NCBI RefSeq assembly: GCF_013201075.1
Contig: NZ_CP053708.1
Span: forward strand, 2,485,501 to 2,549,500
DNA: 64,000 nucleotides
Direction: 5' to 3'
Source of the DNA: Lichenicola cladoniae
Lineage (GTDB): Bacteria; Pseudomonadota; Alphaproteobacteria; Acetobacterales; Acetobacteraceae
The notes below the pieces were generated by a model that did no database searches, was not told the DNA's origin, and was given only the letters and a program-made list of their open reading frames with translations. Below are positions 13,203-52,114 of this stretch, piece after piece (positions within the stretch are counted from its first letter, which is position 1; each line of letters opens with the position of its first letter). The position numbers were made by a program, and so were the translations under genes.

Positions 13203-13970
13203 TCAGGCGCCGCCCCAGTTCATCGTCAGGCCGCCATCCATGGTCCAGGTCTGGCCGGTCACGTAGTCGGCGTCGTCCGACGCCAGAAAGACTGCCAGTC
13301 GCGCGATCTCTTCCGGCTGTCCCGGCCGGTGCCAGGGGATCGAGTCCATCGATTTCCTGCTCTTCTCCGGATCGTCCAGCGTTTCCTGGGTCATCGGGGT
13401 CTGGATCAGGCCGGGCGCGATGTTATTCACGTTGATCCGGTCGGGTGCCAGCTCGATTGCGAGGCTGCGGGTCAGCGAGCCGACGCCCGCCTTCGCCATG
13501 CCGTACGGCGCGCTGCCGGGTGTAGGCAGGTGCTGGGCCACCGAACTGATGGTTACGATCCGACCCTTGCCGCCGTGCTTCTTGCGCAGCCGGATGAAGG
13601 CGCGGCAGCAAAAGAGCGGTCCCATCAGGTCGGTGCGAAGAACCAGCTCCAGCATCTCGTCTTCGAGCTCGGCGACCGGCGTGCCGCCCATGCCCTTGCC
13701 GGCGTTGTTGACCAGCACGTCCACGATGCCGAGCCCGGATGCAGCCTGGAACAATGCCTCGACATCCGCGGGCCGGCCGACATCGCCCTGCACCACGACG
13801 GCGCGCCGCCCGGCCTTCTCGACCCGGCGCTTGGTCTCCTCGGCACCCTCGCGGTCGGTATGATAGCCGATGCACACGTCGGCGCCTTCGTGGGCGAACA
13901 ATTCGGCGATCGCCTGACCGATGCCGGAGTCGGCTCCGGTCACGATCGCGATCCGGTGTTCGAGCTTCAT
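13203..13970 (-). CDS. Short-chain dehydrogenase/reductase (SDR)
   Basis: 255 residues of a classical SDR: cofactor motif TGADSGIGQA (11-20), NNAG (88-91), and the catalytic set S142/S143, Y156 and K160 (YGMAK). Similar to glucose 1-dehydrogenase/3-oxoacyl-ACP-reductase-like enzymes. The residue after the second strand (GYHTDREGAE) hints at NADP preference, though this is uncertain. A transcription unit of its own, just after a damaged phosphate-transporter gene. Confidence 0.88.
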   Translation of the reverse strand: MKLEHRIAIVTGADSGIGQAIAELFAHEGADVCIGYHTDREGAEETKRRVEKAGRRAVVVQGDVGRPADVEALFQAASGLGIVDVLVNNAGKGMGGTPVAELEDEMLELVLRTDLMGPLFCCRAFIRLRKKHGGKGRIVTISSVAQHLPTPGSAPYGMAKAGVGSLTRSLAIELAPDRINVNNIAPGLIQTPMTQETLDDPEKSRKSMDSIPWHRPGQPEEIARLAVFLASDDADYVTGQTWTMDGGLTMNWGGA

Positions 13971-14032
13971 GACAGGTCTCCTCGGTCAATTCGGCGACCG
14001 AACGCCTGAACCGTTGCCGGGACCGATGCTGC

Positions 14033-14054
14033 CCGCACACAAGCCGGTGTGCGG
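14033..14054. terminator. GC-rich hairpin downstream of the PiT remnant
   Basis: Perfect 8-bp inverted repeat CCGCACAC / GTGTGCGG with an AAGCCG loop, 1 nt after the stop codon of the PiT remnant (minus strand). It has no T-tract, so it is at best a weak or relic terminator. Confidence 0.45.
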
Positions 14055-14055
14055 C

Positions 14056-14198
14056 TCAGCTCACCGCATGTGCCAGCCAGTAGAACACCGCACCCACCAC
14101 CGCGGACGCCGGCAACGTAACCACCCACGCCACCACGATGTTGCGCCGACACCGACGATTGACCCGGTCACCATGTGCGTCATCGAGACCGGCGAGGT
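14056..14198 (-). pseudogene. PiT-family inorganic phosphate transporter, C-terminal remnant
   Basis: The minus strand reads TSPVSMTHMVTGSIVGVGA, the conserved PVSTTHxITGSIxGVG loop of PiT transporters, and then, after a frame change and loss of the normal RRxSAVRW segment, RRNIVVAWVVTLPASAVVG...YWLAHAVS and a stop, the last TM helix of the same family. The middle and whole N-terminal part of the gene are missing, and the 3' end of the MFS gene abuts it. This is a decayed gene, probably cut by a deletion that joined the MFS gene to its end. Confidence 0.75.
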
Positions 14199-14234
14199 CC
14201 GGGCCCGGACCTGCTCAATCCACAAAGTCGCCGA

Positions 14235-15671
14235 TCAGCCGCTCGTGCGCGCGGTTCCGAGCCGCGACAGGCTGATGATAGCGGCTACCAGCGCGAAGGC
14301 CGCGCCAACCTCCATGCACGCCGTCGAACCGTGATCATGGGTCAGCAAGAATATCATCGCGACGAGCGCCGCACCGCTGGTCTGACCCAGCAGCCGGGCG
14401 GTGGACAGCATTCCGCTGGCGCCCCCGGCCCGGCTCCTTGGCGCGGACAGCAGCATGGTCCGGTTGTTCGGCGTCTGGAACAGGCCGAACCCGGCGCCGC
14501 ACAGGGCCAGCCGCCAGATCAGCGCGACATTGTCCGGATGCGCCGGCAGCGCGGCGATCAGCAACAACCCGGCGGCCAGGGCCACCAGGCCGAGCGCACC
14601 GAGCAGGCCGGCGGGAACACGGTCCGACAACCGGCCGGCCATCGGCGCCACCACGACCAGCGCCAGCGGCCACGGCGTCAGCAACAGGCCGGTCTGCACT
14701 TCGGAGTGGCCGAGCGTGTTCTGGATGTAGAACGGAAGGGACACGAACGCGAGCATCTGCGCCGCGAACGACATGACCGACGTCGCGATCGACAATGCAA
14801 AGATCGGTATCCGCAGCAGGTCGATCGGCAGCAGGGGAGCAGCCTGGCCGAACTGCCGGCGAACCAGCAGAATGCCACACGCCAGGGTCGCGACCGTCGT
14901 GGCAATCAGCAGCGGCATGTCCGATTTATGGCCGACGCTGTCTATCGAAACGATCAGTAGCCCGAACGTCGCAGCGCTCAACAGCGCACTCAACGTGTCG
15001 AACGGGCGCACGGCAACCGGTGTGCGTGGCAGGCTGGTTATCGCGATCAACACTGCAACGATGCCGATCGGCACATTGACCGCGAACAGCCAGGGCCAGT
15101 TCGCCAGGCTGAGGATCCCGGCGGCGACCGTCGGCCCGACCGCCGTCGCCAGCGCAACCACCATCGCGTTCAGGCCGATGCTTCGCCCCAGATGGCGCTT
15201 CGGATAGATGAAGCGGAGCAGGGCGGCATTGACGCTCATGATGCCGGCGGCGCCGAAACCCTGCAGCACGCGCGCCAGTGTCAGCCCGACCAGCGACCCC
15301 GACAGCGAGCACAACAACGAGCCGACCACGAACAACACGAGGCCCGCGCGGTAGACACGCTGGTAGCCGACGATCTCGCCCAGCGAGGCCAGCGGCAGCA
15401 GGCTCACCGTGATGGCGAGCTGATAGGCGTTGACCACCCAGATCGAGGAGGCCGGGCTGACATGCAGGTCGCGGGCGATCGTCGGCAAAGCCACGTTCGA
15501 GATCGTGCCGTCGAGCACCGCCATGCTGATGCCGAGAAAGATTGTGGCCATCGCCCAGTAGCGGCGGGGTCCCGGCAGCCCATCCTCTTCTATCGTGGGG
15601 GCGACGTGCCCGGCGCTCCCGTCCGCACCCGGATATTGCATGCTCACCAGGTCATCCTCGGGCATCCGCAC
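14235..15671 (-). CDS. MFS multidrug transporter, 14-TM DHA2 (EmrB/QacA) type
   Basis: 478 residues with about 14 hydrophobic segments and the DHA2 signatures: AVLDGTISNVALPTIARDL in helix 1, a WVVNAYQL loop, and GLTLARVLQGFGAAG in helix 4. Members of this group export dyes, drugs and organic cations by proton antiport. The first in-frame ATG (15671) gives a 40-residue hydrophilic leader; a later ATG (MQYPG) may be used. It lies 27 nt after the exported nuclease fusion on the same strand, so the two may be cotranscribed. Confidence 0.88.
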   Translation of the reverse strand: MRMPEDDLVSMQYPGADGSAGHVAPTIEEDGLPGPRRYWAMATIFLGISMAVLDGTISNVALPTIARDLHVSPASSIWVVNAYQLAITVSLLPLASLGEIVGYQRVYRAGLVLFVVGSLLCSLSGSLVGLTLARVLQGFGAAGIMSVNAALLRFIYPKRHLGRSIGLNAMVVALATAVGPTVAAGILSLANWPWLFAVNVPIGIVAVLIAITSLPRTPVAVRPFDTLSALLSAATFGLLIVSIDSVGHKSDMPLLIATTVATLACGILLVRRQFGQAAPLLPIDLLRIPIFALSIATSVMSFAAQMLAFVSLPFYIQNTLGHSEVQTGLLLTPWPLALVVVAPMAGRLSDRVPAGLLGALGLVALAAGLLLIAALPAHPDNVALIWRLALCGAGFGLFQTPNNRTMLLSAPRSRAGGASGMLSTARLLGQTSGAALVAMIFLLTHDHGSTACMEVGAAFALVAAIISLSRLGTARTSG

Positions 15672-15698
15672 AATCAGGCCGGCAGTATGGTCCCATCG

Positions 15699-17366
15699 TC
15701 AGGACGGATCAAAAGCCCGCAGTTCCTCGTGATGGATCAGGTAGACGCCGTTCGTACGCGCGAGCTGCCGGGCCGCCGGCGTGAACGACGCATTCGACAC
15801 CACCGCCGCCAGGTCGGCCCGCTGGTGCAGCCGCGCGGCCGAGATCGCCTGCACCGCCGAGTTGCCGACCGGACTGCTGTACAGCTTGCACTGGAGAACC
15901 AGCGACCTGCCGGCACGACGCGCCAGCACGTCCGTGCCCTGGTCGCCGCTTGCCGCCGTCACCTGCGCCTTCCAGCCGGCCGCGCGCAACAATATCGCGC
16001 AATGGCGCTCGTAGTCGGCCGGCTCCATCCGCGGGTCGAATATCCGCGGATCGCTGACGAACCGCTCGCGTATTGCCTCGGACCTGCCCAGTGCCGACCC
16101 CGGTGCCGACGCCGCGAGTTCGAGCCGATGCTCGACGTCGCCGTTAATGAGCAGCCACTGGTCATCGAGCGCGTTCGCGGCCAGCAGCGGCATGATCCGG
16201 GTCTTGTAGAAATACGCCCGTTCCTTGTTCCAGCGGGCAAGATCGATTGTCCCGTAGGCGTCCACGCCGACCAGCTGCAGTTTCCTGATCTGCAGCGTGC
16301 GCTGGTGGGTCACGATCTCCTGCACCGCAAGTCCGTACGCTTGTCGCGCCCGTCGCCGTCGCGACCGCGCCCCGTGCAGACGACGCACGCCGACCACACC
16401 CAGCACCATCCCGGCGATCACCAGGATGACGACCGCGATCCGGCCGCTGCCACCGGAACCGGTTGCAGCGAGGTCCTGAGGCCTCGGCCTAAGGTTTTCC
16501 TGTTTCTTGGCTGGTGCCAACGGCTTCCGCTCGGCGACCGTGGTCACATCGCCCGGGCGGAAATACAGCGGTGGTTCGCCGATCACCGCCGGGACACGCC
16601 GCAGCAGAAGCAGCCCGCGTTCCTCGGCAACCTTCTCCCAGCGTTGCGCCGGGAGAGCTTCGAAGCAGTGCCCGTCCGCACGGTCGGTCGCGATCGCCTG
16701 GATGCCGTCGGCACGCGGATCCGAACAGGCCACGATCATCGAAGCCGTCCGGAACATGTCGGTCGCAACGACCGGGCTGCGCAGCGCAACGGCATCGGCG
16801 TCCGACATGAAACCGGCCGCGTCCGGCCGGTGCGCGACGCGTTGCCATGTCATGATCGCAGCGCGCGTCGCATTGCCATAGACCCCGTCGCCCTCGGTTC
16901 CCGCTGCCAGGAACCCGAGTGCGACCAGGCGCTGCTGCAGGCCGATCGCCTGTTCGATCGGTCGCGATGCCTCCTCGCGCGCCGGCCCCGACATCTGCCC
17001 GAGCCAGACAGCGCGGTCAGTCTCGGTTTGCGCGGCATAGCAGGCCGGCACGCCGGGTGGCATCGGACGATGCCGCGCGTTCGATGCCGGGACATCGCAG
17101 GCGGCGCGAAGCCTGCTGTCGAACATCGCGGCCTGCGCACGCAGCGCTTTCCATCCGCCCGGGCCATACAGATGCCGAAGCGCTTGGTACGATTGCGCGA
17201 GCATCAGTTCCTCGCGGCTCATGCCGGTATCGTCGCAGATCAGTTGCGACAGCCTGTCGGCGGGTGCCGGGCGCGGGCAAACGAAGCTCGGGCCGATGCG
17301 CACAGACTCCGCAATGCCCGCCGCCGGCATCAGAAGCAGGAACAAGGGCAAGGCAACGCGCTTCAT
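15699..17366 (-). CDS. Exported peptidoglycan-binding / TM / Mrr-type restriction endonuclease fusion
   Basis: About 555 residues in an unusual order. A signal peptide (MKRVALPLFLLLMPAAGIA) is followed by a cysteine-containing region resembling LprI/DUF1311 (about 25-115), a peptidoglycan-binding-like repeat (about 140-177; LQQRLVALGFL...GVYGNATRAAIMTWQ), a TM helix (about 309-327) with a following RSRRRRAR patch, and a C-terminal Mrr_cat nuclease domain (about 450-540). The nuclease motif is intact: GDQGTDV (D475, D479) and Q492-C-K494. The topology puts the first half in the periplasm and the nuclease in the cytoplasm. The frame opens at TTG 17378, but ATG 17366 starts the signal peptide. 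Function unknown. Confidence 0.8.
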   Translation of the reverse strand: MKRVALPLFLLLMPAAGIAESVRIGPSFVCPRPAPADRLSQLICDDTGMSREELMLAQSYQALRHLYGPGGWKALRAQAAMFDSRLRAACDVPASNARHRPMPPGVPACYAAQTETDRAVWLGQMSGPAREEASRPIEQAIGLQQRLVALGFLAAGTEGDGVYGNATRAAIMTWQRVAHRPDAAGFMSDADAVALRSPVVATDMFRTASMIVACSDPRADGIQAIATDRADGHCFEALPAQRWEKVAEERGLLLLRRVPAVIGEPPLYFRPGDVTTVAERKPLAPAKKQENLRPRPQDLAATGSGGSGRIAVVILVIAGMVLGVVGVRRLHGARSRRRRARQAYGLAVQEIVTHQRTLQIRKLQLVGVDAYGTIDLARWNKERAYFYKTRIMPLLAANALDDQWLLINGDVEHRLELAASAPGSALGRSEAIRERFVSDPRIFDPRMEPADYERHCAILLRAAGWKAQVTAASGDQGTDVLARRAGRSLVLQCKLYSSPVGNSAVQAISAARLHQRADLAAVVSNASFTPAARQLARTNGVYLIHHEELRAFDPS

Positions 17367-32736: not shown

Positions 32737-34191
32737 GTGCAGCAGGCGTCGCCCAACTCCGACCCGACCGGCCAGGCGACGCAGGACTGGGTGCTACCCG
32801 GTCCATTCGGGATCGAGCACTGGCACCGGACCGGCACCCGCTTCACCGAACTGGTCACCGGCAACGACACGATCGGGCTGCCGACCGACGCGCTGACGCT
32901 CGGGCGGTTGCGCGCAAGACAATCCGGCTGCGCGCATACCGGCCCATTCCCGAACGCCTTCCGCTTCTGCCCGGACTGCGGCACCGGCCTTTCCGAGCCC
33001 TCCGTCGTTCCTCGCGCCGAACTCTGGTCGCCACCGTTCGGGCCGGGCGACGGCTTGCCGAGCCTCGATGATCGCCGGCTGCCCGACCCGGCGAGCCATG
33101 AGGAGATCGCCGTCCCCGCCTCGCCGGCGCTCGGCTTCGCAGTGGCGGGCACGCCGCCGATGTTGCTGGCCTGCGACCGTGCCAGCGGCCGGATCAGCGG
33201 ATGGTCCGAAGCAAGCAGACAATGGATCAGCCGCGTCCAGATCGCCGGCTGCCTCGGCCTGCCGCGCTGGAGCTGGGCTGCGAGCGCTACGCAATCCGGC
33301 ATCGCGGTGCCGAGCGATCGCGGTCCGGTCTGGATCGACCTGTCCCGGCCGCTGACCGCTCCGGTCGTTGCGATGGACGGCTCCCCGGTCGGCGGCGCCA
33401 TCTCGATCGGCGACCACGCGGCCATGCCGATCCTGCACACGTCCGGCCTCTCCATCGCCATGCTCGACCGCACCGGAAATGCGCCGGGCTGGACCCTGGT
33501 ACCGGTGATCGGCGCACCCGCGGTGCCGACAGGCCCGCTTGCCGCCCCGGTCATGGCGGCGGAACTGGCAACCTGGTGCGGTGCCCGCGGCCAGCTCACG
33601 CTGCAGATGACGGCAGACGGAGCGGCGGCACGATGGCGTCCATGGCGTGACGGCCTGCAACCGTTGCCCGGCGTCCGGCCGGTCATGGAGCGCAACGGCA
33701 CGCTGCACCAGCTCGCCCGCCTCGATGCGCAGACACTGGTGCTGGAGAGCCTGTCCGCCCCGGGCCAGGTGCCCGAGCGGCGCGTGGCGCGCGGCTACGC
33801 AATCAGCAGCGGTCGCGCGGTGTTCCGGGAGAATGCCCGCCTGCGGCTGCCCTGGGACCAGCGCGAGGCGGCCGAGTATCTGCTTCCCGACGACAGCTTC
33901 CTGGCGCCGCTGCTTGCCCTCGACGAGGAACGCTATATCGTCGCCGTCTGCAACCGGCGCGCCGGGCTGGGCGCCTTCCTCGGCGATCCCGCATCCTCAG
34001 CCGAACCGGACGACATCCATTCCTGCGTCCTGCATTTCAGCCGTGGCCCGCGCTCGCTGGAACCACTCGACTGCGTGCTGCGCGCCCGTCACGCCTGGGA
34101 CCTGTCGGTCACGATCCATGCCGGCTGGCTGTATGTTCATGGCGCGGTGGAAGACACCCTGCATCGCTGGCGCCTGCACGATGCACCGTAG
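32737..34191 (+). CDS. First gene of tubulin-like operon: soluble protein with zinc-ribbon-like start
   Basis: 484 residues from a GTG (32737) with GACGAGAG upstream. No signal or TM segment. A possible metal site is formed by C65-x-H67 and C78-P-D-C81 (FRFCPDCGTG). The remaining 390 residues have repeating short beta-type segments with W and G residues (AGCLGLPRWSWAAS, PVWIDLS, GWTLVPVIG, GWLYVHG), which could be a beta-propeller, but no known repeat is clear. It overlaps the vWA-like gene, so it belongs to the operon. Function unknown. Confidence 0.7.
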   Translation: MQQASPNSDPTGQATQDWVLPGPFGIEHWHRTGTRFTELVTGNDTIGLPTDALTLGRLRARQSGCAHTGPFPNAFRFCPDCGTGLSEPSVVPRAELWSPPFGPGDGLPSLDDRRLPDPASHEEIAVPASPALGFAVAGTPPMLLACDRASGRISGWSEASRQWISRVQIAGCLGLPRWSWAASATQSGIAVPSDRGPVWIDLSRPLTAPVVAMDGSPVGGAISIGDHAAMPILHTSGLSIAMLDRTGNAPGWTLVPVIGAPAVPTGPLAAPVMAAELATWCGARGQLTLQMTADGAAARWRPWRDGLQPLPGVRPVMERNGTLHQLARLDAQTLVLESLSAPGQVPERRVARGYAISSGRAVFRENARLRLPWDQREAAEYLLPDDSFLAPLLALDEERYIVAVCNRRAGLGAFLGDPASSAEPDDIHSCVLHFSRGPRSLEPLDCVLRARHAWDLSVTIHAGWLYVHGAVEDTLHRWRLHDAP

Positions 34192-35668
34192 CCGCCCCAT
34201 GCCTGCGCTGTTCGCCCTGCTGCTGTGCCTGTTGGCGCCGATCCAGGCCCTGGCACAGGTGACGTCGGTCTACCTGATCCAGAATTCCGGCTGGATGGAG
34301 CCCTTCTACATCGATCCGAACGCCGCCTTCCGGCCGCTCCTGAACGCGCTGGTCGCAGGCTCGAACGCCGGCGGCGAGGTGGTGATCGCCGACTTCGACC
34401 AGGACGGACAACTCCCCGGCCGGCATTCTCCCAACGTGGTGTATCGCGGGCCGGACGACGCTGCCCGGATCTCCCGCGCCATTGCCGCGATCGACCTGCC
34501 GGGACAGCCGAACGGCCGCCTCACCGACGCCGATTTCGATGGCGCCCTGGTCCGCGGAATCAACACCATCCTGGAAGGCCGCCCCGGCATCATCTGGCTG
34601 GTTACCAACAACCGGAATTCGCCCAACAACAGCCAGCGCGTGAACGAGAACACCCGCGACTTCGCCCGCCGGCTCGGTTCCAGCCCGGCGCTGCCGGTGA
34701 TCGTGTCCTACCCGGTGCGGATGCCGGCGCGGGGACACCTGTACAGCGCCACCGGCCTGATCGTGTACGGCATCGCCTACGGCAACGAAGCCGCAGCCGA
34801 GTTGCGCCGCCTGACCCGCGCACCCGGCCTCACCCGTCTGTTCAGCGATCCCGCCGTGCAGCTGAAACCGCTCGACCAGGCGCCGCTGGTGTTCACGCCG
34901 CAGATCACGACCACCCCCGGCCTGACCGTCAGCCGCTCGCCCGATGGGCGGTTGCGCATCGAGGGGGTGCCCGGCGGACGCGCGTCCGCCGTCGACATCA
35001 CCGGCACGCTGCGCTCGGACTACTATCCGCACGTCATCGACCAGGCGCAGGTGACCCTGCGCTGGGAGAGCCTGGACCATATCCCGGGCCAGGCGGCGCT
35101 GCCGCTGCTGCAAGCCTCGATCGAGCCCAGGGTGCTGCACCGGGTCGCCCCCCGCGACGTGCTGCAGGACGTGCGGATCCGGCTGGACATCCCGCGGATC
35201 GACCGTTCGCCCGGTCTCGCCGGCTGGCTGCAGCACGACGTCACCCTGCACGGCACCCTGGCGATCGACCTCGGCGGCCTGACCCTGTCGCTGCAGGACG
35301 GGTTCGTCGCCAAGATGTCGCAGATCGCGGCGATGGATCAGCTGCCGGCGGTATTCTTCGACAATCGCACCGTGACCGCCGCGTCCGCGGCCCTGCCGGT
35401 TACGCTGGTGGTGCATTTCTCGGCAATGCCGCTCATCCTGGCATTGCTGGCTCTGTTCGGACTGCTGCTCCTGCTGGCGCTGCTGCTGTTCCTGCTTCGC
35501 CGCGACCGCGACCATACCGTGACCCTGGGCGGCCAGGTGCGACGGGTCAGGCTGCGCCCGTTCCAGACGCGCCTGGTGGTGTTGCCGGATGGCCGGGCAT
35601 TCTCGGTGCGTGGCAGACTGGCCGGACCGCCCGCCGCGACGGAACGCGACCCCGCCGACCAACGCTGA
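34181..35668 (+). CDS. Exported vWA-like protein with C-terminal membrane anchor
   Basis: About 495 residues. Signal peptide (HRSRPMPALFALLLCLLAPIQALA), then a vWA-like start VYLIQNSGWMEPF in which the usual DxSxS metal site is replaced by QNSGW (Q34-S36), with IIWLVTNN further on as a Rossmann-type strand. Beta-rich middle, one TM helix at about 416-439, and a cytoplasmic basic tail of about 55 residues. ATG 34181 overlaps the upstream gene by 11 nt; ATG 34199 is an alternative that keeps the signal. Together with the next genes it suggests a periplasmic sensor or scaffold. Confidence 0.72.
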   Translation: MHRSRPMPALFALLLCLLAPIQALAQVTSVYLIQNSGWMEPFYIDPNAAFRPLLNALVAGSNAGGEVVIADFDQDGQLPGRHSPNVVYRGPDDAARISRAIAAIDLPGQPNGRLTDADFDGALVRGINTILEGRPGIIWLVTNNRNSPNNSQRVNENTRDFARRLGSSPALPVIVSYPVRMPARGHLYSATGLIVYGIAYGNEAAAELRRLTRAPGLTRLFSDPAVQLKPLDQAPLVFTPQITTTPGLTVSRSPDGRLRIEGVPGGRASAVDITGTLRSDYYPHVIDQAQVTLRWESLDHIPGQAALPLLQASIEPRVLHRVAPRDVLQDVRIRLDIPRIDRSPGLAGWLQHDVTLHGTLAIDLGGLTLSLQDGFVAKMSQIAAMDQLPAVFFDNRTVTAASAALPVTLVVHFSAMPLILALLALFGLLLLLALLLFLLRRDRDHTVTLGGQVRRVRLRPFQTRLVVLPDGRAFSVRGRLAGPPAATERDPADQR

Positions 35669-35695
35669 CACTCCAGAGCTTCGTTCAGGACAGAA

Positions 35696-36211
35696 ATGAC
35701 CGACCCGTCGCACACGCCGACCGCGCCTGCCACCACTGCCCCGCCGTCGGACTTCAACCTCCGGCCGCCTGCCGACGCGCTGCCGGCAAACGCGACACCC
35801 GCACCCTCGGCGCCCGGCACCGCCCTGCAGACCGGGACCGGCACGCCGATCAACGCGTCCTCCCTGCCCGGCGAGGATGGCCACCTGTCCAGCACCGATG
35901 CGGTGATCGGTGCGGCAATCATGCTGGCGCTGGCCGTGGCGATCTTCTTCATTCGCGGCGCGGTGCGGACCCACCTGATCGCCCACCGCGCCTCGCCGTC
36001 GGCCGCGGGCAATGCCGGCTGGGCGCTGTTCGCGCTGCTGCTGTCGGTGTCGGTGCTGATCGTGTTCGGCCTGCTCGGCGGGCTCTGGTCGATACTCGGC
36101 TTCACCATCCCGCTGGCGGTGCTGATCGTGGTGACGGCGATCCTGTTCACGCTGCTGTATCGCACCGCCGCCCAGGGCCGGGCCCGCGGCCGCCGACCCG
36201 CCAGACGCTGA
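35696..36211 (+). CDS. Three-TM membrane protein of the tubulin-like operon
   Basis: 171 residues. The first 65 are rich in Pro, Thr and Ala and probably disordered; then TM helices at about 69-87, 107-129 and 132-155, ending in a basic GRARGRRPARR tail. Located 27 nt after the vWA-like gene and 10 nt before the tubulin-like gene. It could anchor the GTPase at the membrane; no family recognised. Confidence 0.7.
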   Translation: MTDPSHTPTAPATTAPPSDFNLRPPADALPANATPAPSAPGTALQTGTGTPINASSLPGEDGHLSSTDAVIGAAIMLALAVAIFFIRGAVRTHLIAHRASPSAAGNAGWALFALLLSVSVLIVFGLLGGLWSILGFTIPLAVLIVVTAILFTLLYRTAAQGRARGRRPARR

Positions 36212-36221
36212 GGGCCACGCC

Positions 36222-39200
36222 ATGTCATCCACCCAGACCTCGCAGCCCCATCCCGGCCAGCCTGGACAGGACGAGGACCGCCCTGCCGCGCGCCGCGTGC
36301 AGCCGACATTGTTCGTCGGCATCGGCGGCACCGGCATGCAGATCCTGCTGCGATTGCGCCGGCGCATCCTGACCGGGGACTGGAACGGACGGCGGATCGA
36401 CGACCTGTCCCGGTTCCCGATCGCCTCGTTCGTCTATTTCGACACCGACATGCGGACCGCGATCGAGAGCGACCGGCAGCAGAGCGCCGACCCCCTCGCC
36501 CGTATCGTCGCCTTCCGCGAGAACGAGCGGCTGCAGCACGCGGTCGACGTCAAGCGCTACGTCAAGGATCTCGACCGCTATCCGCTGATCGCCGACTGGC
36601 TGCCGGTCGCCGACTTCTCGCTGATCAACACCGAGAAAGGCGCCGGCCAGGTTCGTGCGATTTCGCGTCTGCTGTTCTTCGACCAGTTCCGCAAGCTCAC
36701 CGACATGCTGCGCGAGCGCAGCGACGGGCTGCTCCGGAGCGTCGGGCGGCAGGACGACCTCGCGCACCTGAACCTGGAGATCGAGAACCGGCTGCGCGTT
36801 GTGGTGGTGTGTTCCGCCGCCGGCGGTACCGGGTCCGGCAGCTTCATCGACATGGGCCTCGCGCTGCGCTCGCTGATCCATCCGGCGCCGACCGTCGATC
36901 TCGTGCTGCTGCTGCCCGGCGGCTATCACGACCACCAGCGCCAGCGGGTGAACGCCAACGGCTACGCGGCGCTCATGGAACTCGAGCACGCGATGCGGCC
37001 GAACCCGCTGCCGCCATTCGTCGAGCAATGGGCCGATCATCAGGGACCGCTGCCGAATATCGCGCCATATGACGACGTGTACCTGCTCGACACACGCAAC
37101 GTACTCGATGACGGTCTCGAGCAGGTCGGCGATCTCTATGACATGGCCGCCGACATCCTGTTCGAGGATTTCGGCACCAGCGAGTTCGCCGCCACCAAGC
37201 GCTCGATCGCCGTCAACCAGGCACAGCACAAGATCGACAATTACGAACCGCCGCTGCCGGCGCATCTCGGCCGACAGTCCCTGCGCTACAGCCAGCTGTT
37301 TTCGAGTTTCGGCCAGGCGACGATCGACACCAAGAGCCGCGTCGCCGTCGACACCGCGGTCGCGGAAACGTCGAAGCAGATGCTCAAGGCCTATTTCAAC
37401 GTCGCAATGGAGGATTCCGGACGGCTGCCGACACCGGCGGAGCGCGACGATTTCCTGGACCGCCAATTCTACCTGAATTCCAGCGCATTCCAGCACGTCC
37501 TGCCCGGCGCCGAGGATGTCTCGACCATCAACGAGCCTTTCCTGATCGACAAACTCCTCGAGAACGAAACCGGCCAGTCGGTGCTCGCGGAAATCGATCG
37601 CGACCTGCTCTCGACCTATCAGTCCGAGGGCTTCCAGAGCGCCGACCCGCATAATCTACCAACCCTGGTGCTGCGCGAGTTCGAGCAGCGGCACGAGGAC
37701 GTGCTCGGCAGCATCAGGCACAAGACCGGATCAGGCCTGGCCGCCGACCGCATTCTCGCCACCCGGCAGCGCCTGACCTCCGAGCGGCGCGGTAATGGGC
37801 CGGATGGTCTGCGGTCCGTGCTCTACGATTATCTCGACCAGCGCGAGCGTGGCGGACTGGACTACACGATCCGGCTGGTCGAGGACGCCAAGCTGCAGAT
37901 CGAGCAGGAAATCGTCAGGCTCGACGAGGTGGAGGCGCGCTACGCGTCCCGCGCCGGCGACACCCAGCGCCGGTTCGAGCAGTCGCTCGAGAATCTTCGC
38001 GAGGCCGTCAACCGGCGTTTCCCGTTCGGGCCCGATCGCAAGGCGGCCGAACGCTACCTCGAACATTTGCGCAACGAGACCGCCTATTACCTGTCCATGC
38101 AGCTGCGTCGCCAGGCTGCCGTCGAGGCCAAGCTGTTCCTGCGCGAGATGTCGGACATGCTGGGCAACCGTCGCGGCCAGGATGCGGAGGGCAACAAGCT
38201 CTGGGATGGCGCTGTCGCCGAACTGGTCCAGGGCCGTGTCCTGGTTCGCCATACCCTGCGCGAGTTCGACACCGAGATCGGGTTGCTGCGCGAAGCGGTC
38301 TCGCGTTGCGACGCGGGCACCTATGTTGTGCTGCCGGCGGCCGACGTGGAAGCTCGCGCCATGCTCGGCAATAACGAGGAAGAAGTGCAGCGCTGGGCGG
38401 AGGAAATGTTCCGCGACGAGGGCGGCTCGCGCAAGCTGTTCCCGATCCTGCGCGACGACATGCAGCGCAGCATCCTGCTCAACCGCCTGCGCGGCTTCTC
38501 GCGGCTGCAGCTCGCGCCGCGTGCGGACGCGCTGCGCTCGGCGCAATCGATCCTGCTCGACATGAGCGCTCGCGACCGGATCGCGTTGTTCCAGCGCGCC
38601 ATGGTTCGCGCCATGCCGTGGCTCGACGCCTCGTTCGACCATCTCGGCGGCGGCATCGCGATGGGTCCGCGCTACACGCTGCTGATCGCGGTGGATGACA
38701 AGGAGGAGTTCGAGCGCAACTTCAAGGCCGAGATCGAGCAGGTGGTGCCGACCGGCCGGCTCGGCATCGGCGCGCCGCAATACCTGAATTCGGGCTTGCG
38801 CGACCGCATCCTGATCTATTGCGAGCTGAGCGGCATCCCGCTCGACAGCATCGATCCGCTGCGCACCGAATGGCGCATCAGCTACCAGCTCGAACAGAAG
38901 AAACCGCTGCCGCTGCACACGCACCGGCAGTCCGAGCGCTTCCCCGATCCGGTCGTGCCCACCACGCAGGAAATCGAGGAGATGCGCCGCAACATGGGGT
39001 TGTTCGTGCGGGGCGTGGCCTACGGCATTCTCGTCCGCGGCAGCCGCCCGGGACAGCCGTACCAGATCGATCTCGGCGGGGGCGACTGGGGCGACGCCGG
39101 TACCGAGCGGATCATCCGCGGCAGCGGCTTCTCGCGCCATCGCGACAAGGTGCAGGCCCGCATCGAGGCGTTCGAACGTGATCTCACGCCGATCCAGGTG

Positions 39201-39827
39201 CTGGCCGCGAGCGCGTTGCTCGCCTGGACCGGCGAGCGGGTTTATGCCGCCCGCATGGCCCGGATCGGTCCGACCCAGACCGATCGCATCCCGGGCATCG
39301 TGCAGACCATGGCGATGGAGCTGTCCCGCCAGCTTCGCGAACGCTACGTGCGGATGGAGGGTGCCGCGGCGCTTGCCGAGGCCGACATGCAGTTCGAGAC
39401 GCTCAAACGCACCATCCCGGACTGGACCGAGGAACTGCCCGGCAGCGCCGCCGACGCGGACCCGCATGACGCCAACCGCGACCCGAACGACCAGCCGGAA
39501 GCCCGCGCATCGGCCAAGCGGCGGATCGTGCCGGACCGGTTCCGGCCGAGCGCACTGCAGCGTCTGCTCAAGCCGGTCGGACCGTCGGCCTCGTTGCCGG
39601 TGGCAGGGCTGCCGGCGTGGCATCTTTCGATCGCAAAACAGCTGACCGGCCCGTTCGGCCTGGCGCAGCTGGCGCTGTTGGCCACTCAGGGCACGCTAAG
39701 GGAGGGCACGAATGTCCGGAGGCTCGGCGCCGCCGCCTGGCAGCATGTGCGCGACATCCCCGAGTTGCTGGCACTGCTGCACGGTGCGCTGCCGGAGGAC
39801 GAGGACGATCTGCCCGATGACGAGTGA
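36222..39827 (+). CDS. Tubulin-like GTPase (Tubulin_2/FtsZ-like family) with C-terminal GYF_2-like domain
   Basis: 1201 residues. FVGIGGTGMQILLRLRRR (31-48) is the first nucleotide loop and SAAGGTGSGSFID (198-210) is the tubulin/FtsZ signature G-box; together they mark the tubulin-like family PF13809. A long helical middle with charged segments (LQIEQEIVRLDEVEARY, about 560-620) suggests coiled coils. The C-terminus (about 1131-1187; WHLSIAKQLTGPFGLAQL, AAWQHVRDIPEL) matches a GYF_2 adaptor domain, followed by an acidic tail. Relatives are thought to remodel membranes or organise secretion-like complexes; function here unproven. Confidence 0.85.
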   Translation: MSSTQTSQPHPGQPGQDEDRPAARRVQPTLFVGIGGTGMQILLRLRRRILTGDWNGRRIDDLSRFPIASFVYFDTDMRTAIESDRQQSADPLARIVAFRENERLQHAVDVKRYVKDLDRYPLIADWLPVADFSLINTEKGAGQVRAISRLLFFDQFRKLTDMLRERSDGLLRSVGRQDDLAHLNLEIENRLRVVVVCSAAGGTGSGSFIDMGLALRSLIHPAPTVDLVLLLPGGYHDHQRQRVNANGYAALMELEHAMRPNPLPPFVEQWADHQGPLPNIAPYDDVYLLDTRNVLDDGLEQVGDLYDMAADILFEDFGTSEFAATKRSIAVNQAQHKIDNYEPPLPAHLGRQSLRYSQLFSSFGQATIDTKSRVAVDTAVAETSKQMLKAYFNVAMEDSGRLPTPAERDDFLDRQFYLNSSAFQHVLPGAEDVSTINEPFLIDKLLENETGQSVLAEIDRDLLSTYQSEGFQSADPHNLPTLVLREFEQRHEDVLGSIRHKTGSGLAADRILATRQRLTSERRGNGPDGLRSVLYDYLDQRERGGLDYTIRLVEDAKLQIEQEIVRLDEVEARYASRAGDTQRRFEQSLENLREAVNRRFPFGPDRKAAERYLEHLRNETAYYLSMQLRRQAAVEAKLFLREMSDMLGNRRGQDAEGNKLWDGAVAELVQGRVLVRHTLREFDTEIGLLREAVSRCDAGTYVVLPAADVEARAMLGNNEEEVQRWAEEMFRDEGGSRKLFPILRDDMQRSILLNRLRGFSRLQLAPRADALRSAQSILLDMSARDRIALFQRAMVRAMPWLDASFDHLGGGIAMGPRYTLLIAVDDKEEFERNFKAEIEQVVPTGRLGIGAPQYLNSGLRDRILIYCELSGIPLDSIDPLRTEWRISYQLEQKKPLPLHTHRQSERFPDPVVPTTQEIEEMRRNMGLFVRGVAYGILVRGSRPGQPYQIDLGGGDWGDAGTERIIRGSGFSRHRDKVQARIEAFERDLTPIQVLAASALLAWTGERVYAARMARIGPTQTDRIPGIVQTMAMELSRQLRERYVRMEGAAALAEADMQFETLKRTIPDWTEELPGSAADADPHDANRDPNDQPEARASAKRRIVPDRFRPSALQRLLKPVGPSASLPVAGLPAWHLSIAKQLTGPFGLAQLALLATQGTLREGTNVRRLGAAAWQHVRDIPELLALLHGALPEDEDDLPDDE

Positions 39828-39842
39828 GCGAGCGCGTTACAG

Positions 39843-40211
39843 GTGAAATGGCGTTCGTCGATGCTGGCCGCATGCGTGATCCTGTCGCCTCTCGCCGCGG
39901 TCGCGCAGGATGTTCCCGGCATGATGCCGTATGGCCAGGACATACCGAGCCTGCTGGTCCGCGACCTCCAGCTCAGTCTGCGCCGCCTCGCCTATTATCG
40001 CGGCGAGGCGGACGGGTTGCATAATCCGGATCTGCTGCGGGCGCTGCTTGCGTTCGAGCGTGACGAACAGGTGGCCCCGGAGGCGGAACCGACGCCGGCG
40101 ATTCTGCAGCTGAGCAACGAGGCGATCGCGCGGATCAGGTCGGGCGGTTCGTGCGGGGATCTGGGGCCACTCCCGGCCGGCACATCCGTGGCGTGCGGCA
40201 GCATCCGCTAG
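39843..40211 (+). CDS. Small exported peptidoglycan-binding-like protein
   Basis: 122 residues starting with GTG 39843. Signal peptide (KWRSSMLAACVILSPLAAVAQ) and a segment DLQLSLRRLAYYRGEADGLHNPDLLRALLAFE (about 41-72) resembling the PG_binding_1 repeat (LQ..L...GYY.G..DG......A...F). Two C-terminal cysteines may form a disulfide. It lies 15 nt after the tubulin-like gene and ends directly before the PEGA gene, so it is part of the operon and puts the system in contact with the cell wall. Confidence 0.7.
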   Translation: MKWRSSMLAACVILSPLAAVAQDVPGMMPYGQDIPSLLVRDLQLSLRRLAYYRGEADGLHNPDLLRALLAFERDEQVAPEAEPTPAILQLSNEAIARIRSGGSCGDLGPLPAGTSVACGSIR

Positions 40212-41273
40212 ATGGCCGGCCACCATCCTTGCGCCGCCTGCGGCGAGACGCTGCAGGGCGTCGTGTCGTTCTGCCCGTTCTGCGGCGCTTCGCAGCAGCC
40301 GGCACCGGCGCGTATTCCGGCCGCGTCGGTAGTCCCGAGCCCCGCGCCACCGACACCGCCTCGGGAGTTGCCGGCGGTGCCGATCCACCAGCCGGTCCCG
40401 CACCGTCTCGTGCCGATCGTCGTGCCGGCGCCGCGCGTCGCGCCACCGGTGCCACCGGCGGCGCAACCTGCCCCACTACCGAAGCAGCCTCCGACCCCGG
40501 CGCAGCGGCGGAGCCGGCGCGACGCTTTGCGCAAGCTGTTGCTCGCGGCGATCATTCTCATCTGTGGCGCGATCCTCTGGCAGCACCTGACCACCGGACC
40601 GCATGCGACGCTCCGGGTGCATCTTTCGCGGCAGGCCGAGGGCGCGCTGACCATCGACGGAGCCAGGGCCGGCACGACGGACGAGGCGATCAGGCTCGCG
40701 CCCGGCCGGCACGTGGTGGGTTTCGATGCCGACGCCTGGACCACGATTCCTGTCACCATCAGGCTCCGTGACGGCGAAACACGCACGATCGAACTCGTGC
40801 CCATCCCGCACCGGGCATTGCTGAGCCTGGACAGCGTTCCGGGTGGCGCCAGGATCGTCGTCGGCGAGCGGCGTCTCGGCCGCGCACCGGCCACGATCTC
40901 GCTGCCGCCGGGCCCGGTGCGCGTGACCGCCGCATTGGCCGGCTACGAGCCCGTGGCTCAGACGATCGTGCTCGCACCCGGCGAGCATCGCAGCCTAGCG
41001 CTTACCTTGCAGGCGATCCCGGCCCAGACGTTGCACCTGGTTGCCCCGGCCGGCATCTGGAGCGAACCGGTCACCCTCGCGCAGGGCGATCGGTTCATCC
41101 TGCTGTTCCATGGCCGCATCCGGGTTCGGGCGAACGGACGGGTTCTTCTGCTGGACGGCTTCAACCGGACCGATCTCGGCACTTTCGAGGACCGGACCCT
41201 CGCCTTCACCGCGGTCGACGGCGCGCCGGTCGATGTCGACCTCATCATCCACAAGGCCGGTAGCCCCGGCTGA
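40212..41273 (+). CDS. Zinc-ribbon / TM / PEGA-domain protein
   Basis: 353 residues. A zinc ribbon with C7, C10, C21 and C24 (PCAACGETL...FCPFCG), a proline-rich linker to about 100, one TM helix (108-126) and a periplasmic part with two PEGA-like beta segments (about 130-275; TLRVHLSRQAEGALTIDGARAG, and SLDSVPGGARIVVGERRLG). PEGA domains bind envelope surfaces. Starts immediately after the preceding stop codon. This cytoplasm-to-periplasm layout makes it a candidate link between the tubulin-like polymer and the cell envelope. Confidence 0.8.
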   Translation: MAGHHPCAACGETLQGVVSFCPFCGASQQPAPARIPAASVVPSPAPPTPPRELPAVPIHQPVPHRLVPIVVPAPRVAPPVPPAAQPAPLPKQPPTPAQRRSRRDALRKLLLAAIILICGAILWQHLTTGPHATLRVHLSRQAEGALTIDGARAGTTDEAIRLAPGRHVVGFDADAWTTIPVTIRLRDGETRTIELVPIPHRALLSLDSVPGGARIVVGERRLGRAPATISLPPGPVRVTAALAGYEPVAQTIVLAPGEHRSLALTLQAIPAQTLHLVAPAGIWSEPVTLAQGDRFILLFHGRIRVRANGRVLLLDGFNRTDLGTFEDRTLAFTAVDGAPVDVDLIIHKAGSPG

Positions 41274-41290: not shown

Positions 41291-42235
41291 ATGAATGCCG
41301 TCCTGTCCGTCCTGCTGCCGATTTTCGGCCTGATCCTCGCCGGCTACGTCAGTGGCTGGAAAGGCTGGCTCGGGAGCGGCGCGACCGACAGCCTGAACCG
41401 GTTCGTGGTCAGGCTGGCACTGCCGGCCGAGCTGTTCCAGAGCATGGCGCAGGTGACCCGCGCCCAGATCGACCACCCCGGTTTCACCGCCGCCTTCGCA
41501 GGCGGCATGCTGGCCACCTTCGCGGTCGGTTTCCTGCTTGACTGGCGCCGTCCGGTCGAACGCACGCACCGGATATCCGGAGCGGCGATCGAGGGGCTGG
41601 CCGCCGGCTACGCCAACACGGCCTTCATCGGCATCCCGCTGTGCGTCGGCGTGTTCGGCCAGGCCGGGCTGCCGCCGGTGGTGCTGGCGACGCTGCTGAC
41701 CGTGTGTGCCCTGTTCGCGCTGGCGATCACGCTGGTCGAACTGGATCAGCAGGCCGGGCAAGGTGCGGGGCGCACGCTCGGCCGCGTATCGGTGGCGCTG
41801 CTGCGCAATCCGCTGGTCGCAGCCCCGATCGCCGGCATCCTGGTCAACCTGTCCGGCCTGGGACTGGCGAGCCCGGTGCTGCAGTTCACCACCCTGCTCG
41901 GGGCCGCCGCGAGCCCGTGCGCGCTGGTGACGATCGGCCTGTTCCTGGCCGAGACGAGATCCGACGCCGCCGAGCCGTTCGCGGTCGCGCGCGTCGTCGC
42001 CGCCAAGCTGCTGCTGCAACCGGCAGTCACCGCGTTCCTTGCCTTCGTGGTGTTCCCGATGCCGCGCCTCTGGGCGGAGGCAGCCCTGCTGATCAGCGCA
42101 CTGCCGGTCGGCACCGGCCCGTTCATGCTGGCGCGGCTCTACGACCGGGAAGCCGCCATCGCCAGCCGCGCCACCCTGATTTCGACGATCCTGTCGCTGG
42201 TCACCGTTTCGCTGCTGCTGGGATGGATCGGTTGA
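41291..42235 (+). CDS. AEC (auxin efflux carrier)-family transporter
   Basis: 314 residues, about 10 hydrophobic segments in two inverted halves, beginning VLSVLLPIFGLILAGYVSG, with NRFVVRLALPAELFQSMA and GYANTAFIGIPL, the conserved crossover region. AEC transporters move small organic acids such as malate or malonate, or act as exporters. It starts 17 nt after the PEGA gene and so may share the transcript, though its role in that system is doubtful. Confidence 0.87.
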   Translation: MNAVLSVLLPIFGLILAGYVSGWKGWLGSGATDSLNRFVVRLALPAELFQSMAQVTRAQIDHPGFTAAFAGGMLATFAVGFLLDWRRPVERTHRISGAAIEGLAAGYANTAFIGIPLCVGVFGQAGLPPVVLATLLTVCALFALAITLVELDQQAGQGAGRTLGRVSVALLRNPLVAAPIAGILVNLSGLGLASPVLQFTTLLGAAASPCALVTIGLFLAETRSDAAEPFAVARVVAAKLLLQPAVTAFLAFVVFPMPRLWAEAALLISALPVGTGPFMLARLYDREAAIASRATLISTILSLVTVSLLLGWIG

Positions 42236-51343: not shown

Positions 51344-52114
51344 TCATGCGAGCATCGCCTGGCCGAGCACCGGGGTCGACGGGCTCGCCATGTCGCGCGG
51401 CTCCATCGGATCGGCCAGCCTTGCCGCATACCCGGCTTCCACCGCGAGGCGGAACGCGTGCGCCATCGCCGCCGGGTCGCCGGCCTGGGCGACGGCGGTG
51501 TTGATCAGCACCGCGTCGTAGCCGAGTTCCATCGCGGCGGCGGCATGCGACGGCAGCCCGATGCCGGCATCCACCACCAGCGGCACATCCGGGAAATGCG
51601 CCCGCATCGCCCGGAGCCCGAACGGGTTGTTCAGCCCCTTGCCCGAGCCGATCGGCGCACCCCACGGCATCAGCACTTCGCAACCGGCCCGAAGCAGGCG
51701 CTCGGCCACCACGAGATCCTCGGTGGTGTAGGGAAACACCTTGAACCCGTCATCGGTCAGGATGCGCGCCGCCTCGACCAGGCCGAACACGTCCGGCGCC
51801 AGCGTATCGCCCTCGCCGATCACCTCGAGTTTCACCCAGTCCGTGGCGAACACCTCGCGGGCCATCTGAGCGGTCGTCACCGCTTCGCGCACCGAGTGGC
51901 AGCCCGCGGTGTTCGGCAGCACCCTCACGCCCAGGCCCTGGATCAGCGTCCAGAACGCCTGGCCCGCCCGCATCCCGGCGGACTCGCGCCGGAGCGAAAC
52001 CGTCACGAGCTCGGTGCCCGAGGCCCGTACCGCATCGGCGAGGACGTCCGGCGACGGATACAGGGCAGTACCCAGCAGCAGCCTGGAGTGCAGCGCAGTT
52101 CCATAGACCAGCAT
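51344..52114 (-). CDS. thiG: Thiazole synthase
   Basis: 256 residues. ThiG condenses 1-deoxyxylulose 5-phosphate, dehydroglycine and ThiS-thiocarboxylate. Motifs: [12 protein letters not shown], the Schiff-base lysine in [25 protein letters not shown] and [19 protein letters not shown]. Three nt after thiS on the same strand. Confidence 0.95.

What the first reader, a model, noticed from the sequence alone, without database searches (positions are those of the whole stretch)
32737..41273. Six-gene operon: tubulin-like GTPase linked to an envelope-spanning apparatus
Six plus-strand genes with gaps of 0-27 nt or overlaps encode a zinc-ribbon-like soluble protein, an exported vWA-like anchored protein, a 3-TM protein, a 1201-residue tubulin-like GTPase (GIGGTG and AAGGTGSGSF), an exported PG-binding-like protein and a zinc-ribbon/TM/PEGA protein. 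Tubulin-like PF13809 proteins next to vWA and membrane genes are a known theme (FtsZ-like families described by Makarova and Koonin), but the PEGA, PG-binding and GYF_2 parts, which connect the polymer to wall and envelope, suggest a specific unexplored machine for membrane remodelling, wall attachment or secretion.
Basis: partly seen in the sequence, partly recalled or inferred. Interest (0 to 1): 0.82.

Follow-up and report, generated by a model that had tools for sequence, protein, structure and literature searches.

The report
Tubulin-like operon spanning the cell envelope
A bacterium carries a conserved gene cassette that appears to tie a tubulin-like protein inside the cell to proteins in the membrane and beyond it; the tubulin family was known, but the cassette's fixed make-up and its exchangeable docking tip suggest a testable cytoskeleton-to-envelope link.

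Summary
The six genes (A-F here, window 32737-41273) are real and tightly packed. D belongs to the published FtsZl1/Tubulin_2 family (Makarova & Koonin 2010), so the tubulin/vWA/membrane theme is not new. In the window plus 69 relatives, A is found in 67 of 70 loci, B in 69, C and D in 70, F in 55; a Gly-zipper lipoprotein gene follows F in 35. New here: A is a predicted beta-propeller. B looks like a vWA domain whose metal-binding Asp is always Gln (28 of 28). D's model resembles a complete two-domain tubulin split by a ~425-residue helical insertion. D's tip carries either GYF (68 of 70) or zinc ribbons (L064 and 11 of 11 distant relatives). F is zinc ribbon, usually Pro-rich linker, TM, variable periplasmic part; D's GYF is closest in the PDB to Myxococcus AgmX (GltJ). 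Best reading: a GTP-driven tubulin-like scaffold docked through GYF onto F in a trans-envelope complex. Polymerisation, docking and function are inferred.

The parts
32737..34191 (+). A: cytoplasmic beta-propeller protein (484 aa)
34199..35668 (+). B: exported, C-terminally anchored vWA-like protein (ATG 34181 also possible)
   Evidence: Hydropathy. Pfam none in 28 of 28 members. hhalign to a vWA profile P=2.3e-4, Prob 44; three control segments Prob 0.5 or less.
34280..34297 (+). QNSGWM motif in place of the vWA MIDAS DxSxS
   Evidence: Q, S, G, W, M invariant in 28 aligned B proteins. That DxSxS is the MIDAS motif is stated in PMC2875224.
35696..36211 (+). C: three-TM protein
   Evidence: Hydropathy. 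N-terminus outside by charge rule in 30 of 31 homologues; LPxP/IPxP-type motif near the N-terminus in 27 of 31, not in the window's own copy (DFNLRPPAD).
36222..39827 (+). D: Tubulin_2/FtsZl1 protein (1201 aa)
   Evidence: Tubulin_2 E=1.3e-50. AlphaFold2 of residues 20-1201: pLDDT 85.1, pTM 0.73. Best structural matches are tubulin superfamily.
36300..37397 (+). D residues ~27-392: GTPase domain, helices read as H7-H9, strand read as S7
   Evidence: GGTG and GGTGxG loops invariant in 29 sequences. Acid at residue 321 ([DE]FAxxKR) in 27 of 29. Element names are my reading.
37398..38672 (+). D residues ~393-817: helical insertion
   Evidence: Mostly helix in the model. VIA alignments to CetZ, TubZ, FtsZ and tubulins run from about D25 to D890-913 with 287-368 aligned residues.
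38673..38906 (+). D residues ~818-895: proposed second half of the tubulin C-terminal domain
   Evidence: Model strands and helix at model residues 799-853; end of the VIA alignments. A sequence-profile test was negative.
39618..39767 (+). GYF_2 domain at D's C-terminus
   Evidence: Pfam 8.7e-10; 68 of 70 D proteins; 7z3c, AgmX, E=0.0043 with the six-row D profile and 1.6e-4 with one Janthinobacterium tail.
39843..40211 (+). E: exported PG_binding_1-like protein, shorter than in two congeners
   Evidence: 21.7 bits vs cut-off 23. L022 and L023 copies have about 80-95 further residues between signal peptide and the PG-binding-like part; related to a Rhizobiales downstream gene by hhalign Prob 68, P=4.8e-5, no control run.
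40212..41273 (+). F: zinc ribbon, Pro-rich linker, one TM, periplasmic PEGA region
   Evidence: Pfam; architecture counts.
40230..40286 (+). Zinc ribbon of F
   Evidence: C7, C10, C21, P22, C24 invariant in 21 aligned F.
40287..40526 (+). Pro-rich linker of F, proposed GYF ligand
   Evidence: 81 residues, 32% Pro; background 90-residue windows of A, B and D: median 5.6%, 95th percentile 12.2%.
40821..41012 (+). PEGA domain of F (lineage-specific)
   Evidence: PF08308 E=6.7e-16 here, 1 of 21 representatives.

Best explanation
The operon encodes a trans-envelope complex organised by a tubulin-superfamily GTPase. D is a complete two-domain tubulin/FtsZ-type protein whose second domain is interrupted by a ~425-residue helical arm. 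It binds GTP and probably self-assembles on the inner face of the cytoplasmic membrane. Its C-terminal GYF domain docks onto the Pro-rich cytoplasmic linker of F, a single-pass protein with an N-terminal zinc ribbon and a variable periplasmic part (TPR, TonB_C or PEGA in different lineages). F, with the vWA-like B and the three-TM C, forms the membrane part. In many relatives a Gly-zipper lipoprotein continues it towards the outer membrane, and in the window's group a PG-binding-like E acts in the periplasm. The propeller A is a cytoplasmic scaffold for D. The likely job is to position or pull an envelope structure by GTP-dependent assembly, with the GYF/zinc-ribbon tip as the switchable adaptor, as GltJ, with zinc ribbon and GYF, couples the cytoskeleton to the Myxococcus gliding machine (that GltJ function is recalled). 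Shown by computation: operon conservation, domain content, predicted folds, the GYF/zinc-ribbon alternation. Inferred: the split second domain, GTP hydrolysis, assembly, GYF-to-F docking, outer-membrane placement of the lipoprotein, force or positioning.
Against: No experiment. GYF-to-F binding is inferred from co-occurrence; D's own linker before GYF (PPPL in many relatives) is a rival ligand. F was not found in 6 of 70 loci with more than 7 kb after D (L024, L025, L028, L029, L031, L076), although all six have GYF. L064 has zinc ribbons on both D and F, so the ribbon did not simply move from D to F. Four of 51 F linkers are not Pro-rich. A profile comparison of D with 30 FtsZ sequences found only a weak match around loop T4 (Prob under 1) and nothing in the second half; the two-domain claim rests on the AlphaFold model. 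The Azospirillum plasmid copy has A, C and D but no B, and only a weak F-profile match to a PEGA protein. The Tubulin_2 gene with a phenotype (Sll0445) belongs to a different operon.
Confidence: 0.45

Rival explanations
1. Membrane remodelling proper (the published reading): D filaments bend or vesiculate the inner membrane, and the exported partners shape the product rather than link to wall or outer membrane.
For: Proposed for FtsZl1 from genome context (PMC2875224). Tubulin fold and several membrane proteins.
Against: D has no membrane segment by hydropathy. [quoted passage not shown] The near-constant adaptors GYF and zinc ribbon point to protein docking.
Confidence: 0.22
2. D does not polymerise; it is a nucleotide-switched scaffold. 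The propeller, vWA-like and zinc-ribbon proteins form a signalling or assembly complex that senses envelope state.
For: Of FtsZ's two catalytic T7 acids (recalled), only one appears kept, 27 of 29. Long insertion and C-terminal extension could block a filament. Makarova and Koonin left non-polymerisation open.
Against: The overall predicted fold is closest to CetZ, TubZ, FtsZ and tubulins, which form filaments (polymerisation recalled).
Confidence: 0.2
3. A stress, conflict or anti-phage system that happens to use a tubulin-like GTPase.
For: Patchy distribution, 3 of 398 genomes for B. An Azospirillum plasmid copy of A-C-D sits among caspase-family, OmpA and DUF4384 genes, and a distant Thermus plasmid homologue near vWA and brxL genes. 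Two of 125 flanking ORFs encode TerD.
Against: No PADLOC match (E up to 1) or PHROG match (E up to 0.01) for A-F. Among 125 flanking ORFs the 8 PADLOC families listed each match one ORF; no formal background was computed. The cassette is largely envelope proteins and lacks a recognisable effector.
Confidence: 0.13

Closest known systems
FtsZl1 family and its predicted operons (Makarova & Koonin 2010, PMC2875224)
   Same: PF13809 N-terminal domain, long helical centre, helical C-terminal region, neighbouring vWA-type gene, periplasmic or outer-membrane partners.
   Different: Here a fixed A-B-C-D(-F-lipoprotein) cassette; the vWA-like partner lacks the MIDAS Asp; GYF/zinc-ribbon tip. The paper could not identify T6-H7 or a tubulin-like C-terminal domain, which the model here suggests are present. 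I could not read its supplementary gene tables, so it may list some of these partners.
GltJ (AgmX) of the Myxococcus Agl-Glt gliding machine (PDB 7z3c; PMC3169522)
   Same: D's GYF domain is closest to AgmX's in the PDB by sequence. F, like GltJ, is a predicted inner-membrane protein with a cytoplasmic zinc ribbon and, in some relatives, a periplasmic TPR or TonB_C part (GltJ's zinc ribbon, GYF position and TonB/TPR parts are recalled).
   Different: GYF and zinc ribbon lie on two proteins here; no other Glt gene was recognised in the conserved cassette (no dedicated search); the cytoskeletal partner is tubulin-like, not MreB (recalled).
CetZ, FtsZ, TubZ and tubulins
   Same: Glycine-rich loops and, in the model, the two-domain fold.
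   Different: About 425-residue helical insertion, ~300-residue C-terminal extension with GYF; second T7 acid apparently not kept.
Synechocystis sll0445-sll0447 (PMC9880817)
   Same: Sll0445 has a Tubulin_2 domain; interruption mutants of all three genes were impaired in phototaxis, and the paper reports complexes with pilus assembly proteins.
   Different: Partners are FtsA-like and DivIC-like, not A, B, C or F; function cannot be transferred.

Membership tests
FtsZl1 / Tubulin_2 (PF13809) | Significant match to the PF13809 N-terminal domain | tested here: met
   E=1.3e-50, 173 bits vs cut-off 27; 29 of 29 representatives
FtsZl1 / Tubulin_2 (PF13809) | Long helical/coiled-coil centre and mostly helical C-terminal region | tested here: met
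   DSSP on the AlphaFold model; no coiled-coil program was run
FtsZl1 / Tubulin_2 (PF13809) | vWA-domain gene in the operon (majority of published operons) | tested here: inconclusive
   No Pfam match in 28 of 28 B proteins; weak hhalign match
Canonical vWA domain | MIDAS motif DxSxS | tested here: not met
   Q replaces D in 28 of 28
Tubulin/FtsZ superfamily | Glycine-rich GTP-binding loops | tested here: met
   GGTG and GGTGxG invariant in 29 sequences, the x being S in 90% or more
Tubulin/FtsZ superfamily | C-terminal tubulin/FtsZ subdomain | tested here: inconclusive
Tubulin/FtsZ superfamily | GTP-dependent polymerisation | not testable with these tools
   Needs purified protein
GltJ / Agl-Glt gliding machinery | Zinc ribbon and GYF on one inner-membrane protein (recalled) | tested here: not met
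   GYF on D, zinc ribbon on F
GltJ / Agl-Glt gliding machinery | AglRQS motor genes | not tested
   No dedicated search; the flank scan lists only 25 of 66 Pfam families
Known anti-phage systems (PADLOC-DB) | Match to a system protein model | tested here: not met
   0 matches for all six proteins at E<=1

The most novel reading that the evidence does not exclude
A new way for bacteria to couple a cytoskeleton to the envelope: a tubulin-superfamily polymer with a long helical arm built into its second domain, whose interchangeable GYF or zinc-ribbon tip grips a zinc-ribbon/Pro-rich transmembrane transducer (a split GltJ), with a metal-free vWA-like gate and an outer-membrane lipoprotein completing a trans-envelope machine.
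Probability: 0.27. Interest if true: 0.87.

Novelty: new variant of a known kind. Interest (0 to 1): 0.62.

Why it matters
FtsZl1 was predicted in 2010 to run a new membrane machine, with the open question whether it can form filaments at all, since part of its tubulin fold could not be found. The model here places that missing part after a large insertion and names residues to mutate. The cassette occurs in tractable bacteria (Pseudomonas chlororaphis and fluorescens, Janthinobacterium, Methylobacterium), so the question becomes directly testable. The GYF/zinc-ribbon alternation offers a concrete interface linking a bacterial tubulin to the envelope.

Tried and rejected
SrfB link: suggested by a weak SrfA_fam match of F (E=0.011); PF07520 gave nothing in the genome, but no control genome rang either, so uninformative. 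Anti-phage reading: see rivals. PEGA or PG-binding as the core of the machine: rejected by distribution. C's N-terminal Pro motif as GYF ligand: disfavoured, as charges put C's N-terminus outside in 30 of 31. First regular expression for F found only 27 of 55; a wider one found 53. FtsZ profile against D, whole, in parts and with the insertion left out: only a weak match around T4, no gain from the joining. phmmer of a Janthinobacterium F against the PDB: no convincing relative (best 2mii, E=0.015). BLASTP of the end of the window F against a Rhizobiales F: best E=0.02 over 20 residues, so common descent of their periplasmic parts is not claimed. sigma-70-like promoters 0, Rfam 0. hmmsearch of B against the PDB: two unconvincing matches. 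Literature: the GltJ switch paper that I recall was not found in the library. No paper describing this cassette turned up in searches 10 (30 of 449 listed), 21, 69, 97; most subscription papers are not held, so this is not proof.

Row choices: one search kept the best 80 of 154 relatives; 69 matched most of D and 11 only its first third to half. Representatives are 31 clusters at 75% identity, the window's included; the D alignment for modelling used 29 rows (L061 and L064 left out), B 28, A 27, C 31, F 21. L016 is the same locus as L076, and L012-L015 are the same loci as L022, L050, L023 and L021. Six of the 11 distant loci are near-identical Microcystis, so about six are independent. A was not found in L054 (1.3 kb upstream available), L041 (contig starts inside B) and L061 (contig starts just upstream of C). 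The F count of 55 includes L050, a minus-strand hit cut by the contig start, and L042 and L046, cut by contig ends.
Full report
WHAT IS THERE. Six plus-strand genes occupy 32737-41273 with gaps of 0-27 nt or a short overlap. Pfam recognises Tubulin_2 (E=1.3e-50) and GYF_2 (8.7e-10) in D, PEGA and a weak zinc ribbon in F, a sub-threshold PG_binding_1 in E, and nothing convincing in A, B or C. Hydropathy gives B a signal peptide and C-terminal TM, C three TMs, F one TM, and A and D none. The genome has one Tubulin_2 gene.

HOW WIDESPREAD. Tubulin_2 occurs in 10 of 147 genomes of the window's kin, its own included (9 over the cut-off), and in 8 of 398 sampled Pseudomonadota, again with its own and a congener (7 over the cut-off); B in 3 of the same 398, all with Tubulin_2. 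A scan of a named genome collection found 154 loci encoding relatives of D; the best 80 were kept. Of these 69 match over most of D (Acetobacteraceae, Rhizobiales such as Methylobacterium and Aureimonas, Burkholderiales such as Janthinobacterium and Massilia, Pseudomonas, Stenotrophomonas, Rhodanobacter, Humidesulfovibrio and several MAGs) and 11 only over its first part (cyanobacteria, Acidobacteria and others). In the window plus the 69, profile searches found A in 67, B in 69, C and D in 70, F in 55 and E in 3 loci. Where all four are present the order is A-B-C-D in 65 and B-C-A-D in 2 (L050, L076). Those two come from the window's own family, but their D is only 32-33% identical to the window's, less than that of the Rhizobiales (36-39%). 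F follows D in 49 loci and precedes A in 5 Rhizobiales; L050 has a cut minus-strand hit upstream. Of the 15 loci without F, 9 contigs end before a whole F could fit, and 6 have more than 7 kb left. A Gly-zipper lipoprotein gene (class read from the sequences) follows F with 35 strong profile hits; 2 more hits are weak. Rhizobiales loci instead carry a Gly-zipper lipoprotein, a trypsin-like protein and an E-like protein downstream of D, each in part of the loci. Flanks beyond the cassette are largely unshared. So the conserved unit is A-B-C-D plus F and a lipoprotein; E and PEGA are local additions. On an Azospirillum plasmid A, C and D (with a GYF-like tail, by eye) occur without B, among OmpA, DUF4384 and caspase-family genes.

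THE TIP. GYF is found in 68 of 70 D proteins and, by Pfam, in 29 of 29 representatives (L061 and L064 were not among them). L061 is cut by the contig end. L064 has four tandem zinc ribbons in place of GYF. All 11 distant D proteins carry a C-terminal zinc ribbon and no GYF (Pfam for two of them), about six of them independent. Thus GYF and zinc ribbon alternate at the same tip. The nearest solved GYF is AgmX (7z3c; E=0.0043 with the D profile, 1.6e-4 with one D tail), that is GltJ (renaming: PMC3169522), which I recall to carry both a zinc ribbon and GYF and to couple the gliding machine to the cytoskeleton. Here the zinc ribbon is on F and GYF on D. The GYF domain of human CD2BP2 binds Pro-rich PPPGHR segments (PMC12034629 passages), so F's linker is the natural candidate ligand; D's own PPPL-containing linker is an alternative.

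MECHANISM. The statement, with shown and inferred steps, is under Best explanation. I put the architecture (a trans-envelope complex with D as cytoplasmic organiser) well above the specific docking and force claims.

LITERATURE SEEN. PMC2875224: abstract and parts 1-3 of 5. PMC9880817: section 9 and passages. PMC9871819, PMC5898192, PMC3169522, PMC12034629: passages only. The Synechocystis Tubulin_2 mutant has impaired phototaxis, but with different partner genes. The GltJ switch work is recalled, not read.

VERDICT. It is a new variant of a known kind: a well-defined, conserved cassette around a published tubulin-like family, with a specific and testable coupling hypothesis.

Noticed in passing
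window 41291-42235: AEC-type (auxin efflux carrier-like, name recalled) transporter ORF only 17 nt downstream of F on the same strand, also next to F in L012/L022 (74% identical); it may be co-transcribed in this genus.
   Followed up: partly
window 39843-40211; L022, L023: E of the window lacks about 80-95 residues that the two congeners have before the PG-binding-like part.
   Followed up: partly
L129 (Azospirillum sp. TSA2s plasmid p2): A-C-D homologues without B, surrounded by three caspase-family, three OmpA-family and two DUF4384 genes.
   Followed up: partly
L130 (Thermus oshimai plasmid): A distant tubulin-like gene next to a vWA gene and, after one hypothetical gene, brxL.
   Followed up: no
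L070 and L075, about 13506-15810: A second, shorter D-like stretch downstream of F in two Pseudomonas loci.
   Followed up: no
L050, L076 versus window: Two clearly different versions of the cassette within one family (order B-C-A-D, D 32-33% identical), suggesting transfer or an old duplication.
   Followed up: no
window 51468-51545: ARAGORN reports a tRNA-like element with a four-base anticodon; Rfam at its gathering thresholds finds nothing in the window, probably spurious.
   Followed up: no
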